Assembly (NCBI RefSeq): GCF_002355655.1
Contig: NZ_AP017569.1
Span: forward strand, 1,674,001-1,738,000
Direction: 5' to 3'
DNA length: 64,000 nt
From: Halorubrum trapanicum
GTDB taxonomy: Archaea > Halobacteriota > Halobacteria > Halobacteriales > Haloferacaceae
Both the position numbers and the translations under genes were made by a program. Positions 14,008 to 64,000 of the stretch are shown here, piece by piece; the stretch's first letter is position 1; each line of letters begins with the position of its first letter. The notes under the pieces were generated by a model. It searched no databases. It was not told the DNA's origin and saw only the letters and a list, made by a program, of their open reading frames with translations.

Positions 14008-14409
14008 TTTATAAGTGTCTGGCGTAGTGTCGCTCGTTGATTTATAAACTACTCTCAGCGAGACGGACACCTCCAAAGTCCCAGCCGTCCGGCTATATAC
14101 GCCTGATAATAGACCTACAGAGAACGCCTCCAAAGCCCCAGCCGTGAGGCCGGCGGACGCTCGCTGTGCTCCTCGGTCGCTCACTCCGTTCGCTCCCTGC
14201 GGTGCTTACATCGCCTCCGCCGGCCTCACGGCTGCCCCTTTGAGTCCCGCCCCGCACCGCACGGCACCGAAACCTCACCCCTCCCCAGCCTCGTCGCCCG
14301 GCCTCCGCTTCGCTCCGGCCGGGCGACTCCCTCGCGCGGTGCCGTTCGCGGCCGCCGGGGCGGCCGCTCACGGGCACGCGCCGACCGCCACCGCCGCGTC
14401 CATTTATAA
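14008..14409 (-). repeat. Three-hairpin intergenic element, copy A
   Basis: Read on the minus strand, it starts at TTTATAA (14403-14409) and contains hairpin III (arms 14348-14356 and 14359-14367), hairpin II (14293-14303 with 14317-14327) and the long hairpin I (14140-14157 with 14216-14233, perfect 18-bp arms). Fixed linkers GAGGCTGGGGAGG, GGACTCAAAGGGGCAG and CTGGGGCTTTGGAGG are present. A 57-nt tail unit is followed by two shortened ones, with TTTATAA at 14041 and 14008. It lies between uvrC and thpR, in their orientation. ORFs within it are not credible. Confidence 0.85.
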
Positions 14410-14435
14410 GATATCGTTGCCGTCCACAGTTCCGT

Positions 14436-19687: not shown

Positions 19688-20130
19688 TTTATAAATAAGT
19701 GCTCCTGCGGTCGGCGCGTGCCTCCGAGCGCTCAGCGGGCGCGAGGAGCACGCGCGAGGGAGTCGGCCGACCGGAGGGAGGCCGACGAGGCTGGGGAGGT
19801 GTGAGGCTGCGGTCCCGCGAGCGACCGGTGGGAGCGAGCGGGAGCACGGAAGTCGCAGCCCGCGCAGCGAGCGAAGCGAGCGAGCAGGACCGTCTTCCGG
19901 CGGTGCGGTCGCGGTCGGGTGGGACTCAAAGGGGCAGCCGGGAGGCGGGCGCAGGCGACGTAAGTAGCGTGGCGCGACGCGCCACGGAAAGCCGGCGGCG
20001 GAGCCGCCGGCGACACCGCAAGGAGTGAGCGGAGCGAACGACTGAGGAGCGCAGCGAGCGTGTGCTGTCCTCGCGACTGGGGCTTTGGAGGTGGTCACCG
20101 ACACCCCGCAATCGATCAGTTATAATTCGA
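19688..20130 (+). repeat. Three-hairpin intergenic element, copy B (mosaic, extra hairpin)
   Basis: Starts at TTTATAA (19688-19694) and carries all fixed linkers on the plus strand. Hairpin II arms are GTCGGCC/GGCCGAC. A segment at about 19804-19918, shared with copy F, adds a hairpin (TCCCGC/GCGGGA). Hairpin I is broken: the left arm after 19936 matches copy C, whereas the right arm (20061-20077) resembles copy F and is not complementary. About 55 nt with two small hairpins (GCGTGGCG...CGCCACG; GCCGGCGG...CCGCCGGC) is inserted in its interior. One 57-nt tail unit ends in TTATAA (20120-20125), which contains the stop of the following gene. Confidence 0.8.
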
Positions 20131-29536: not shown

Positions 29537-29910
29537 TTTATAAACGAACCGCGGTGGCGCGTGCCGGTGAGCGGCCGGCAGGCCGCGAACCGCACGCGCG
29601 AGGGAGTCGGCCGACCGCAGGGAGGCCGACGAGGCTGGGGAGGTGAGAGGTGCGGTTGCGGTGCTGTGGGGCGGGACTCAAAGGGGCAGCCGGGAGGCGG
29701 GCGCAGGCGACGCAAGCACCGCAGCGAAGGAGCGGTAGCGACTGAGCGAGGAGCACAGCGAGCGTGCGCCCGCCTCCCGGCTGGGGCTTTGGAGGTGTTC
29801 GCGGTCGATCCACAGTGGACCACGTACAGCCTCCCGGCTGGGGCTTTGGAGGTGTTCGCCGCGGGTCCGTGGTCGGTTACTTATAAACGATCAGCTGGGA
29901 TTTAAAAGAC
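29537..29910 (+). repeat. Three-hairpin intergenic element, copy C (canonical)
   Basis: The cleanest plus-strand copy. TTTATAA (29537-29543) is followed by GGTGGCGCGTGCC, hairpin III (GCGGCC/GGCCGC), hairpin II (GTCGGCC/GGCCGAC) and hairpin I with perfect 18-bp arms (29688-29705 with 29765-29782). The interior contains a nested ACCGC/GCGGT hairpin. Two tail units of exactly 57 nt start at about 29778 and 29835, the second containing TTATAAAC (29881), then a truncated third. It lies between divergently transcribed phosphohexomutase and FMN reductase genes. Confidence 0.88.
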
Positions 29911-33434: not shown

Positions 33435-33847
33435 TTTATAAATCGTTGTTACTAGCGGTGTCGTGACTACTGTTACATCTCCAGCCGTTTGCTTATAAAC
33501 AACTGACCACAGATCGACGGCAAACATCTCCAAAGCCCCAGCCGCTCGGCTATACGCTGACACCCCCTGATTGACGGTGAACACCTCCAAAGCCCCAGCC
33601 GTGAGGCAGGCGCAGGCGACGCAAGTACCGCAGGGAGCGAACGAAGTGAGCGACCGAGGAACGCAGCGAGCGTGCGCCTGCCTCACGGCTGCCCCTTTGA
33701 GTCCCACCCCGCACAGCACCTCACGCCTCCCCAGCCTCGTCGCTGGCACCCTCCGCTTCGCTCCGGGAGCCAGCGACTCCCTCGCGCGGTGCGGTTCGCG
33801 CCGCGTTGCGGCGCTCACCGGTACGCGCCGCCGCGGTCCGTTTATAA
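33435..33847 (-). repeat. Three-hairpin intergenic element, copy D (hairpin I interior inverted)
   Basis: Flanks read on the minus strand from TTTATAA (33841-33847) and have all fixed linkers. Hairpin III (33798-33804 with 33808-33814), hairpin II (33739-33747 with 33769-33777) and hairpin I (33597-33614 with 33673-33690) all have perfect arms. The interior 33615-33672 reads GGCGACGCAAGTACCGCAG on the plus strand, opposite to its flanks; in all other copies it agrees with them. Three tail units of 57 nt each follow, with TTTATAA at 33491 and 33435. Located between the KH gene and the thermosome promoter. Confidence 0.87.
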
Positions 33848-33962
33848 GCGATTTGCGTCCAGCAGTTGATCTAGAGTTCTATATAAAGGCCCGTGTGAAC
33901 GCACCGCATACCGGCCGATACTCCCGCACCGTGTTGCGGTTTCGCACGACCCGAGCAAAGGG

Positions 33963-46911: not shown

Positions 46912-47267
46912 CCCTCGGTGAACGCCGCCAAAGTCCCAATCGTTCGCTTATAAATGACTGTCTATAGATCGACGGACGATACCTCCAAAGCCCCAGCCGG
47001 CGAGGCGGGCGCACGCTCGCTGTGCGCCTCACTCGGTCGCTATCGCTCCCTCGTTCGGTGCTTACGTCGCCTGCGCCCGCCTCGCCGGCTGCCACTTTGA
47101 GTCCCGCCCGACAGCTCCGATACCGCACCTCACGCCTCCCCAGCCTCGCCGCTCGCTCGGGGCTCCCTTCGGTCGCCCGCGTCGCTCGCGGCGTCCCTCG
47201 CGCGTGCTCCTCGCGGCCGCCGATGGCGGCCGCTCGCAGGCACGCGCCACCGCGGATCTATTTATAA
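46912..47267 (-). repeat. Three-hairpin intergenic element, copy E
   Basis: Minus strand from TTTATAA (47261-47267). Hairpin III has GCGGCCGCC/GGCGGCCGC arms; hairpin II is shortened to CGCCGC/GCGGCG; hairpin I has perfect 19-bp arms (46995-47013 with 47072-47090). The linker reads GGACTCAAAGTGGCAG, one base from consensus. One full 57-nt tail unit holding TTATAAA (46948) and a truncated second end it. The thiQ stop codon lies about 12 nt beyond its 5' border. Confidence 0.85.
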
Positions 47268-47278
47268 GCGTTCGTCGG

Positions 47279-52545: not shown

Positions 52546-53027
52546 TTTATAAATACGGTGTGGTGGCGCGTGCCTCCGAGTGGCCGCCGAAGGCGGCCGC
52601 GAGGAGCACGCGCGAGGGAGTCGGCCGACCGGAGGGAGGCCGACGAGGCTGGGGAGGCGTGAGGCTGCGGTCCCGCGAGCGACCGGAGGGAGCGAGCGGG
52701 AGCACGGAGGTCGCAGCCCGCGCAGCGAGCGAAGCGAGCGAGCAGGACCGTCTTCCGGCGGTGCGGTCGCGGTCGGGTGGGACTCAAAGGGGCAGTCGCG
52801 AGGACGCCGTAGGCGACGTAAGCACCGCAGCGAAGGAGCGGTAGCGACTGAGCGAGGAGCGCAGCGAGCGTACGGCGTCCTCGCGACTGGGGCTTTGGCG
52901 GTGGTCGCCGTTGATCAGCGGCCACCCACGTACAGCCGAGCGATGGGGCTTTGGCGGTGGTCGCCGTCGATCAAGTCTCAGCTATTTATAAACGAGCGAC
53001 TGAGCCTTCGGAGACGTTCGCCGCGCA
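52546..53027 (+). repeat. Three-hairpin intergenic element, copy F (long subtype)
   Basis: Plus strand from TTTATAA (52546-52552). Hairpin III GGCCGCC/GGCGGCC; hairpin II GTCGGCC/GGCCGAC; then the extra segment shared with copy B (about 52665-52776, hairpin TCCCGC/GCGGGA). Hairpin I has perfect 18-bp arms (52794-52811 with 52871-52888), with bases different from the other copies. Tail units of 57 and 56 nt follow, the second with TTTATAA at 52985, then a partial third. In both full tail units GGAGG is GGCGG. It ends 60 nt before hisA. Confidence 0.86.
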
Positions 53028-53085: not shown

Positions 53086-53826
53086 ATGAGCGACTTCCCC
53101 GAGTTCGAGGTGATCCCCGCCGTCGACGTGCAGGACGGCGAGGTCGTCCAGTTGGTCGGCGGCGAGCGCGGGACGGGCAAGCGCTACGGCGACCCGGTCG
53201 CGGCCGCCGAGCGGTGGATCGAGGCGGGCGCCGGCACGCTCCACCTCGTCGACCTCGACGGCGCGTTCGAGGGCGAGCGCGTCAACGCGGCGGCGATCGA
53301 GTCGGTCGTCGAGAGCGTTCCGGACGCGGTCGGCCTCCAACTGGGGGGCGGCATCCGCACGGCAGAGGGCGCGCGCGACCTCCTCGAGTTGGGCCTCGAC
53401 CGCGTCATCCTCGGTACCGCGGCGGTCGAGACGCCCGAGATCGTCGCCGAGATCGACGAGACGCACCCCGGGAGCGTCGTCGTCAGCCTCGACGCGAAGG
53501 ACGGCGAGGTCGTGGTGTCGGGGTGGACCGAGGGGACCGGGCTCGACCCGGCCGAGGCCGCGGCGCGCTACGAAGAGCTGGGCGCCGGCGCGATCCTCTT
53601 TACGAACGTCGACGTGGAAGGGCAGTTAGAGGGGATCGACCGCGAGGCGGTCGCGAGCGTCGTCGAGGCCGTGGACATACCCGTCATCGCCTCCGGCGGC
53701 GTGGCGAGCGTCGAGGACGTTGTCGATTTAAAAGAGGCCGGCGCGGCCGCGGTCGTCGTCGGCACCGCGCTGTACGAGGGCGAGTTCACGCTCCGAGAGG
53801 CGCAGAACGCGGCCGATGAGATTTAA
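53086..53826 (+). CDS. hisA: ProFAR isomerase
   Basis: A 246-residue TIM-barrel enzyme of histidine synthesis (isomerises phosphoribosylformimino-AICAR-P). Catalytic Asp in IPAVDVQDGEVVQL (near residue 12), GGGIRT phosphate loop, ILGTAAVETP, second Asp in SLDAKDGEVV and ASGGVASVED. Full length. Element G separates it from hisB by 500 bp. Confidence 0.95.
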   Translation: MSDFPEFEVIPAVDVQDGEVVQLVGGERGTGKRYGDPVAAAERWIEAGAGTLHLVDLDGAFEGERVNAAAIESVVESVPDAVGLQLGGGIRTAEGARDLLELGLDRVILGTAAVETPEIVAEIDETHPGSVVVSLDAKDGEVVVSGWTEGTGLDPAEAAARYEELGAGAILFTNVDVEGQLEGIDREAVASVVEAVDIPVIASGGVASVEDVVDLKEAGAAAVVVGTALYEGEFTLREAQNAADEI

Positions 53827-53855: not shown

Positions 53856-54227
53856 TTTATAAGTGACACTCGGATCGCCGGAGAACACCTCCAAAACTCC
53901 AGTCGCTTGTTAATAAATGACTGACTGTGGATCGCCGGCGAACACCTCCAAAGCCCCAGCCGGGAGGGCGCCGCACGCTCGCTGCGCTCCTCACTCGGTC
54001 GCTCACTGCGTTCGCTCCCTCGTTGCGGTGCTTGCGTCGCCTGCGGCGCCCTCCCGGCTGCCCCTTTGAGTCCCACCCCGCACCGCAACCGCACCTCACG
54101 CCTCCCCAGCCTCGCCGCTCGCTCGGGGCTCCCTTCGGTCGCCCGCGTCGCTCGCGGCGTCCCTCGCGCGGTGCTGCTCGGCCGCAAAGCGGCCTCGCAG
54201 GCACGCGCCACCGCACTCCATTTATAA
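53856..54227 (-). repeat. Three-hairpin intergenic element, copy G
   Basis: Minus strand from TTTATAA (54221-54227), opposite to flanking hisA and hisB. Hairpin III GGCCGC/GCGGCC with loop TTT; hairpin II CGCCGC/GCGGCG as in copy E; hairpin I with perfect 18-bp arms (53958-53975 with 54042-54059). One 57-nt tail unit carries the degenerate box ATTTATTAAC; the next ends in TTATAAAT (53856-53862 on plus strand). Confidence 0.86.
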
Positions 54228-54325
54228 GCATTCTCTCGACTCCCCAATCACGACTGCTCCTCTCTTGCGGAACCGAACCCCGCCCCACCCGCAACCGACT
54301 TACGAATCCCCCGCGACGGGCCCGT

Positions 54326-63592: not shown

Positions 63593-63986
63593 TTTATAAG
63601 GTAGACCGTGGTGTCGCTGTCGGCTATTTATAAACGACCGACGCTGCTAGGGTGCCGATATCCAAAGCCCAGTCGCTCGTTTATAAATAGCTGCTAGCAA
63701 GCCCACGGACGACGCCTCCAAAGCCCCAGCCGCGAGGGCTCGGTGCGGTCGCTGCGGTCCTCGTCGGTCGCTGCCGCTCCCTCCCTGCGGTACTTGCGTC
63801 GCCTATGTCGGCCTCGCGGCTGCCCCTTTGAGTCCCACCCGCACCGCTCCGCACCTCACTCCTCCCCAGCCTCGCCGCTCACGCTTCGCGGCTGCGCCGC
63901 TCGCGTTCGCGGCGTCCCTCGCGGGCTGGCTCGCGGCCGCCGGTGGCGGCCGCTCGCAGGCGCGCCACCGCACTTTCTTTTTATAA
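63593..63986 (-). repeat. Three-hairpin intergenic element, copy H
   Basis: Minus strand from TTTATAA (63980-63986) near the window edge. Hairpin III GCGGCCGCC/GGCGGCCGC; hairpin II CGCCGC/GCGGCG. Hairpin I keeps only 10 paired bases (63728-63737 with 63812-63821), its inner half having diverged. A 57-nt tail unit, a 53-nt unit and a fragment follow, with TTTATAA at 63680, 63625 and 63593. Confidence 0.82.
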
Positions 63987-64000
63987 GCGCTCGTCGCCGT

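What the first reader, a model, noticed from the sequence alone, without database searches (positions are those of the whole stretch)
29537..29580. Each element starts with a promoter-like TTTATAA at a nearly fixed distance from the first conserved box
In seven copies TTATAA is followed after about 10-16 nt by GGTGGCGCG (GGCGGCGCG in D); copy A has a 12-nt insertion. With archaeal TATA-to-start spacing of about 25 nt, transcription would begin inside or just after this box, so each element could be an independently transcribed RNA gene of about 300-450 nt.
Basis: inference. Interest (0 to 1): 0.65.

Follow-up and report, generated by a model that had tools for sequence, protein, structure and literature searches.

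The report
TATA-flanked folded repeats across Halorubrum chromosomes
The TTTATAA motif is a real, position-fixed part of an undescribed repeat that sits between genes about 180 times on the chromosome of a salt-loving archaeon; part of the family still moves like a small transposon, but the motif is probably not the essential promoter of an RNA gene, because copies without it keep an equally perfect folded core.

Summary
Confirmed and extended. All 8 window copies have TTATAA 15-23 nt upstream of GG[T/C]GGCGCG (the G-box). Genome-wide, 71 of 105 copies have it within 40 nt (about 1 expected), mode 16 nt. Spacers are almost all different (73 distinct of 81), so the motif itself looks selected. 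The host is a Halorubrum.

The family: about 180 copies, all on the chromosome, intergenic (85/85 tested). Core = hairpin P1, GAGGGA, hairpin P2, a near-invariant box CGAGGYTGGGGAGGNGNGAGG, long hairpin P3, then 57-nt tail units, most carrying another TTATAA. Stem arms co-vary (z about -22). Seventeen of 120 scorable copies retain inverted-repeat ends; one pair is identical over ~540 nt in unrelated flanks, so it moved recently. The core is in nearly all Halorubrum searched and in another family's genus, which lacks the TATA.

"Independently transcribed RNA gene" is only weakly supported: 23% of copies lack any TATA yet have an equally intact core; the expected start cuts P1's 5' arm; G-U pairs are 1-2% versus 8-10% in this genome's SRP and RNase P RNAs.

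Best reading: a MITE/SMR/BOX-like structured repeat whose core is maintained by selection. Function unproven.

The parts
29537..29544 (+). TTTATAAA, the TATA-like motif of the finding (TTATAA 29538-29543)
   Evidence: enrichment
29553..29565 (+). G-box GGTGGCGCGTGCC; its GCGCGTGCC is the 5' arm of hairpin P1
29557..29599 (+). hairpin P1 with conserved tandem GA/GA internal loop
   Evidence: own vs swapped arms z = -23.6; GA/GA 91 cases
29600..29605 (+). invariant GAGGGA between P1 and P2
29606..29630 (+). hairpin P2
   Evidence: z = -21.4
29630..29650 (+). near-invariant box CGAGGYTGGGGAGGNGNGAGG; about 180 copies in the genome
29679..29791 (+). long hairpin P3: CAAAG-GGG-CAG..../....CTG-GGG-CTTTG
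   Evidence: z = -21.9
29781..29894 (+). two 57-nt tail units CTGGGGCTTTGG...; TTATAA at 29881-29886
19689..20125 (+). copy of the element (TTATAA 19689, G-box 19709, box 19786-19806), with a ~90-nt insert after the box and a double-hairpin insert in P3
52547..52991 (+). copy of the element (TTATAA 52547, G-box 52562), upstream of hisA (53086-53826)
53862..54232 (-). copy of the element (G-box 54212), downstream of hisA, faces the previous copy
46948..47272 (-). copy of the element (G-box 47251)
33436..33852 (-). copy of the element (G-box 33832) beside the thermosome gene; interior of P3 inverted
14009..14414 (-). copy of the element (G-box 14386)
63594..63991 (-). copy of the element (G-box 63969)

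Best explanation
The finding marks the 5' edge of one copy of a chromosome-wide, non-coding, structured interspersed repeat of Halorubrum, of the MITE / small-mobile-repeat / BOX kind. Shown: complete copies are 450-560 nt units with inverted-repeat ends, and at least one has moved recently. Shown: most copies have lost those ends but keep the TATA motif and the multi-hairpin core. Shown: stem arms stay complementary while their sequence changes, partly by whole hairpins being swapped between copies. Inferred: the core is read as a folded single strand (the strand with the GA/GA loops) by some host or transposon factor, and selection on that keeps box and hairpins intact wherever a copy survives. 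Inferred: the TTTATAA boxes at both ends and in the tail are a selected but dispensable module, either a weak promoter or an AT-rich weak point that lets the GC-rich hairpins open. They do not serve as the indispensable promoter of a separate RNA gene.
For: About 180 box copies, all on the 2.84-Mb chromosome, none on the 0.24 Mb of other contigs; backwards-pattern control 0-1. Box mismatches: nearly all copies 0, a few 1, none 2, the rest background. 85/85 copies intergenic; convergent gaps 31, divergent 10, tandem 44, against 37/51/142 elsewhere (p = 0.0006, convergent vs divergent), the pattern read as parasitic insertion for pneumococcal repeats (PMC3049150). No orientation preference in tandem gaps, 21 vs 23. 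Inverted-repeat ends CGATAGCGGGAGTGRGT in 17 of 120 scorable copies. Copies at 2623004 and 2788475 identical over ~540 nt, unrelated outside. Arm co-variation z -21 to -24. P2 swapped between close species at one site while P1 and P3 match. G-U 1.0-2.2% vs 8.1 and 10.2% in SRP and RNase P RNA. Core equally intact with or without TATA.
Against: No transposase was found for the inner or outer ends, and no target-site duplication was demonstrated. Most copies have no ends. A purely selfish repeat should decay after insertion, yet the box is all-or-nothing and copies persist at orthologous sites. Absence from plasmids is odd for a mobile repeat, since the outer ends alone occur on 75-119 plasmid records. 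The gene calls were my own predictor.
Confidence: 0.5

Rival explanations
1. Multicopy non-coding RNA gene family: each element is transcribed from its own TTTATAA into a 300-450 nt RNA, and the conserved box is the RNA's functional single-stranded region.
For: TATA at fixed spacing, kept while the spacer varies and TATA-like variants tolerated. One strand folds better than the other (P3 97%, P2 91% of copies). No orientation link to neighbour genes, as an autonomous unit would show.
Against: TATA-less copies are equally intact. The start would fall inside P1's 5' arm. No TATA in the second genus. Very few G-U pairs, and G-T vs A-C mismatches about equal, 28 vs 26. No Rfam match.
Confidence: 0.22
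2. Chromosomal organisation or maintenance element: the folded or melted DNA is a site for a host factor acting on the chromosome (replication, segregation, nucleoid), with TTTATAA as an opening element.
For: Chromosome only; spacing more even than random (CV 0.80 vs 0.99 +/- 0.07); each surviving box nearly perfect; arms kept complementary with few G-U pairs; kept at orthologous sites; close neighbours mostly face each other (16 of 20 under 3 kb).
Against: Presence at any one site varies among species; copy number runs from 18 to 180 within the genus; recent movement of part of the family; absent from most haloarchaea.
Confidence: 0.2
3. Regulatory 3' or 5' region element of the neighbouring gene: a promoter facing outward or an mRNA stability hairpin.
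For: Often about 70 nt behind a gene's end; hairpins would be read through.
Against: TATA presence does not depend on the direction of the upstream gene (p = 0.28), nor the tail TTATAA on that of the downstream gene (p = 1.0). Folding is strand-specific but orientation to genes in tandem gaps is even. pgm keeps its own separate promoter-like GCATTATTGTCC.
Confidence: 0.08

Closest known systems
Small mobile repeats (SMR-A) and MITEs of Haloquadratum walsbyi (PMC3119063)
   Same: Short, non-coding, inverted-repeat ends, no transposase, sit inside other mobile elements; from haloarchaea
   Different: Here the core is elaborately folded with hypervariable co-varying stems, an almost invariant box and TATA motifs, about 180 copies mostly without ends; no sequence comparison with those families could be made
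BOX elements of Streptococcus pneumoniae (PMC3049150)
   Same: Modular (fixed 5' and 3' parts, tandem middle or tail units 1-6x), stem-loops, intergenic, enriched between convergent genes
   Different: Different domain and sequence; here stems vary while loops and box are fixed, and TATA motifs flank the core
REPINs / RAYT system (PMC3116915)
   Same: Extragenic, hairpin-forming, hundreds of copies, genus-wide
   Different: Depends on a Y1 transposase; genomes with 110-130 copies here have none
Intergenic repeats of halovirus HF2 (PMC8707807)
   Same: Repeats of 56-58 nt with an AT motif; those have proven promoter activity in haloarchaea
   Different: Viral; their reported motifs are not those of the 57-nt tail; no match of this element to any phage record
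Mitochondrial double-hairpin elements (papers listed)
   Same: Hairpins defined by structure, free stem sequence, inserted in intergenic DNA and in each other
   Different: Much shorter; mitochondrial; resemblance mainly to the small inserts nested in this repeat

Membership tests
MITE / small mobile repeat | terminal inverted repeats | tested here: met
   CGATAGCGGGAGTGRGT at both ends in a subfamily; 17 of 120 scorable copies have the left end; not seen in the others
MITE / small mobile repeat | too short to code for a transposase | tested here: met
   450-560 nt; longer ones carry an insert, two of them apparent insertion sequences that I read as IS6-like from memory
MITE / small mobile repeat | moved copies in unrelated flanks | tested here: met
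   2623004 and 2788475 identical over ~540 nt
MITE | ends related to a known transposon | tested here: inconclusive
   Outer ends GGCTCTGTTGAAAYCC found on many haloarchaeal plasmids, but no transposase between them in the three regions read
MITE | target-site duplication | tested here: inconclusive
   None recognised at the ends printed
REPIN / RAYT or IS200/IS605 derivative | resident Y1 (PF01797) transposase | tested here: not met
   None in G053 (128 copies), G107 (130), G210 (110)
BOX-like modular repeat | conserved ends with variable number of tandem units | tested here: met
   Tail units 1 to 6
BOX-like modular repeat | enriched between convergent genes | tested here: met
   31 convergent vs 10 divergent, p = 0.0006
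Independently transcribed RNA gene | promoter whose start includes the whole folded RNA | tested here: not met
   Predicted start inside P1 5' arm; prediction only
Independently transcribed RNA gene | copies without promoter decay | tested here: not met
Independently transcribed RNA gene | a transcript exists | not testable with these tools
   No RNA data available
Any Rfam 15 family | covariance-model match | tested here: not met

The most novel reading that the evidence does not exclude
A chromosome-restricted family of structure-defined elements, each copy individually under purifying selection, shared by two archaeal families, recognised as a folded single strand (RNA or DNA) by a dedicated host factor and flanked by TATA-like opening or promoter boxes: a host chromosomal system without a described counterpart.
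Probability: 0.25. Interest if true: 0.88.

Novelty: new variant of a known kind. Interest (0 to 1): 0.62.

Why it matters
About 180 intergenic regions of a Halorubrum chromosome, and 18 to 171 in the 13 other genus members sampled in one scan, carry this element. It would confound promoter, terminator and small-RNA annotation in the genus, and its TATA boxes could be mistaken for gene promoters. A repeat whose stems are free to change but whose 20-nt box is nearly invariant in every surviving copy, and which is shared by two families, gives a clean test of whether an archaeal interspersed repeat is parasitic or used by the host.

Tried and rejected
IS200/IS605 or RAYT mobilisation: rejected, Y1 transposase does not track copy number. 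Gene cassette or composite-transposon reading of the facing pairs: the genes between are housekeeping (hisA, ffh, cysS and others by recall of their sequences). TATA as promoter of the neighbour gene: no dependence on its direction; pgm has its own conserved AT-rich promoter-like site. Known RNA family: no Rfam match, even at E <= 5. Viral or plasmid origin of the core: no phage record, 8 weak plasmid records. First consensus folding of the MAFFT alignment was uninformative because stem lengths vary, so it was replaced by per-copy folding and arm swapping. Long TIR copies (1.15 kb) taken first for an autonomous parent turned out to hold unrelated insertion sequences. Literature searches found no description of this repeat in the open-access library; subscription papers are not held.

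Full report
WHAT WAS CHECKED. The window is a stretch of the 2.84-Mb main contig of a 3.08-Mb genome. Its pgm protein is 92-93% identical to Halorubrum sp. Atlit-26R, H. sodomense and others, so the host is a Halorubrum species. At 29537 the sequence is TTTATAAA and GGTGGCGCG starts at 29553. Eight copies lie in the window, three on + and five on -.

THE TATA MOTIF IS REAL. In 105 copies with a recognisable G-box, TTATAA lies within 40 nt upstream in 71, and 48 are at 15-17 nt. The background rate gives about one. Counting TATA-like variants, 79 of 105 copies have one at the expected place, against 1 of 105 in a control interval. In 81 copies with TTATAA the spacer to the G-box is mostly 10 nt but has 73 different sequences. 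A homogenising process that copied the motif would have copied the spacer too, so selection on the motif is the simpler reading (inference). The tail shows the same habit: TTATAA is exactly 14 nt before the next CTGGGGCTTTGG in 58 of 67 cases.

ANATOMY. From 5' to 3': TTTATAA; GGTGGCGCGTGCC; hairpin P1; GAGGGA; hairpin P2; box CGAGGYTGGGGAGGNGNGAGG; a G/T-rich linker; hairpin P3 (CAAAG-GGG-CAG...CTG-GGG-CTTTG); and 1 to 6 tail units of about 57 nt. Pairing a 5' arm with the 3' arm of another copy costs much energy: z = -23.6, -21.4 and -21.9 for P1, P2 and P3. P1 and P2 carry a conserved tandem GA/GA mismatch (91 and 41 cases). The strand described folds better than its complement in 76%, 91% and 97% of copies for P1, P2 and P3.

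COPY NUMBER AND PLACE. The box occurs about 180 times, 85 on + and 95 on -, all on the main contig, none on the two others (0.24 Mb); the backwards pattern gives 0-1. Proportional placement would put about 14 on the others. Allowing three mismatches adds only background, and no copy has exactly two: copies are perfect, nearly so, or gone. All 85 copies with callable neighbours are between genes. Convergent gaps are favoured and divergent ones avoided (31 and 10, against 37 and 51 elsewhere). In tandem gaps orientation is even (21 vs 23). Spacing is somewhat more even than random, and 16 of 20 neighbours closer than 3 kb face each other.

DISTRIBUTION. By DNA similarity the element is in all but one or two of the Halorubrum genomes searched strongly, and weakly or not at all in most relatives. 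By the box it is abundant in Halorubrum (14 of 14 genomes, 18 to 180 copies) and in a genus of another family (up to 130 copies), with smaller numbers in two further genera and nothing above noise in most of 243 genomes. The second genus may be Halorussus: the only hint is plasmid matches. Its copies share P1, GAGGGA, P2, box and linker, but have a different 3' part and no TATA. Phage records have no match, and 8 of 72,556 plasmid records a partial one.

PERSISTENCE AND MOVEMENT. At three sites (pgm, thermosome, both sides of hisA) the element is at the same place and orientation in many Halorubrum species, missing in others, and reduced to a stub in some. Stems differ between such orthologues while box and usually TATA are kept. 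L039 and L058 share P1 and P3 at one site but differ wholesale in P2, so whole hairpins are exchanged. Seventeen of 120 scorable copies have an inverted-repeat end CGATAGCGGGAGTGRGT, 16 of them with the extra TTTAAATA box. The copies at 2623004 and 2788475 are identical over about 540 nt and unrelated outside. Around them lie outer ends GGCTCTGTTGAAAYCC...; the inner unit occurs in both orientations relative to these. The outer ends occur on 75 and 119 plasmid records, so the core is scarce on plasmids although its carrier ends are not. No transposase was found.

IS IT AN RNA GENE? Genes of this genome show their AT peak 26-29 nt before the start codon, and HF2 halovirus promoters have the TATA beginning at -26 (PMC8707807). 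From the element's TATA a start would fall at about +9 to +14 of GGTGGCGCGTGCC, inside or at the end of P1's 5' arm. The 28 of 120 copies without any TATA-like motif have equally good boxes, P1/P2 energy and P3. G-U pairs make up 1.0-2.2% of pairs, against 8.1% in SRP RNA and 10.2% in RNase P RNA of this genome, and G-T and A-C mismatches are about equal (28 vs 26). This fits arms kept alike at the DNA level better than selection through RNA pairing. None of this excludes transcription.

MECHANISM, WITH STATUS. Shown: a repeat unit with inverted ends that has moved; a folded core kept intact; hairpin swapping; a conserved TATA motif not needed for core upkeep. Inferred: the core is used as a folded single strand by a factor in trans; the TATA-like boxes help transcription or strand opening. 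Unknown: the factor, the transposase, and whether the host benefits. The all-or-nothing box and the chromosomal restriction speak for a benefit; polymorphic presence and the convergent-gap preference speak for a parasite.

VERDICT. Observation confirmed; interpretation partly supported; an undescribed variant of the known MITE/SMR/BOX kind as far as the open-access library shows, with an open chance of being a host chromosomal system.

Noticed in passing
window about 19970-20020 and P1/P3 of other copies (e.g. L150, L203, L241): Double-hairpin inserts of about 50-60 nt, with freely varying perfect stems and a short linker (GCCA, TGCCAG), are nested inside P1 or P3 of the big repeat; they look like a second repeat family.
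   Followed up: partly
window 33588-33699: In the copy at 33832 (-) the interior of P3 is inverted relative to other copies, as if flipped between the stem arms; the L048 copy looks the same.
   Followed up: partly
window 19815-19902 and 52673-52760: Two copies 33 kb apart share a ~90-nt insert between box and P3 (94% identity across the 240-nt stretch); related inserts are in L041 and L201.
   Followed up: no
G000:C1:928008-928319 and 1916548-1916910: Both the SRP RNA and the RNase P RNA gene have a copy of the element within about 200 nt.
   Followed up: no
L161 (476183-477336) and L237 (1992263-1993422): Short insertion-sequence-like inserts with a transposase-like reading frame (IS6-like by recall, not tested) are inserted in the tails of two full-length copies.
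   Followed up: partly
G000 pairs such as 146294/148443 and 1626972/1627716; window 52547 and 54232: Sixteen of 20 neighbouring copies closer than 3 kb face each other with tails inward, around housekeeping genes.
   Followed up: partly
L068-L073, upstream of pgm: Distant Halorubrum relatives have pgm with a GACGTTATGGTCC variant of the promoter-like site and other unrelated repeats in the same gap.
   Followed up: no
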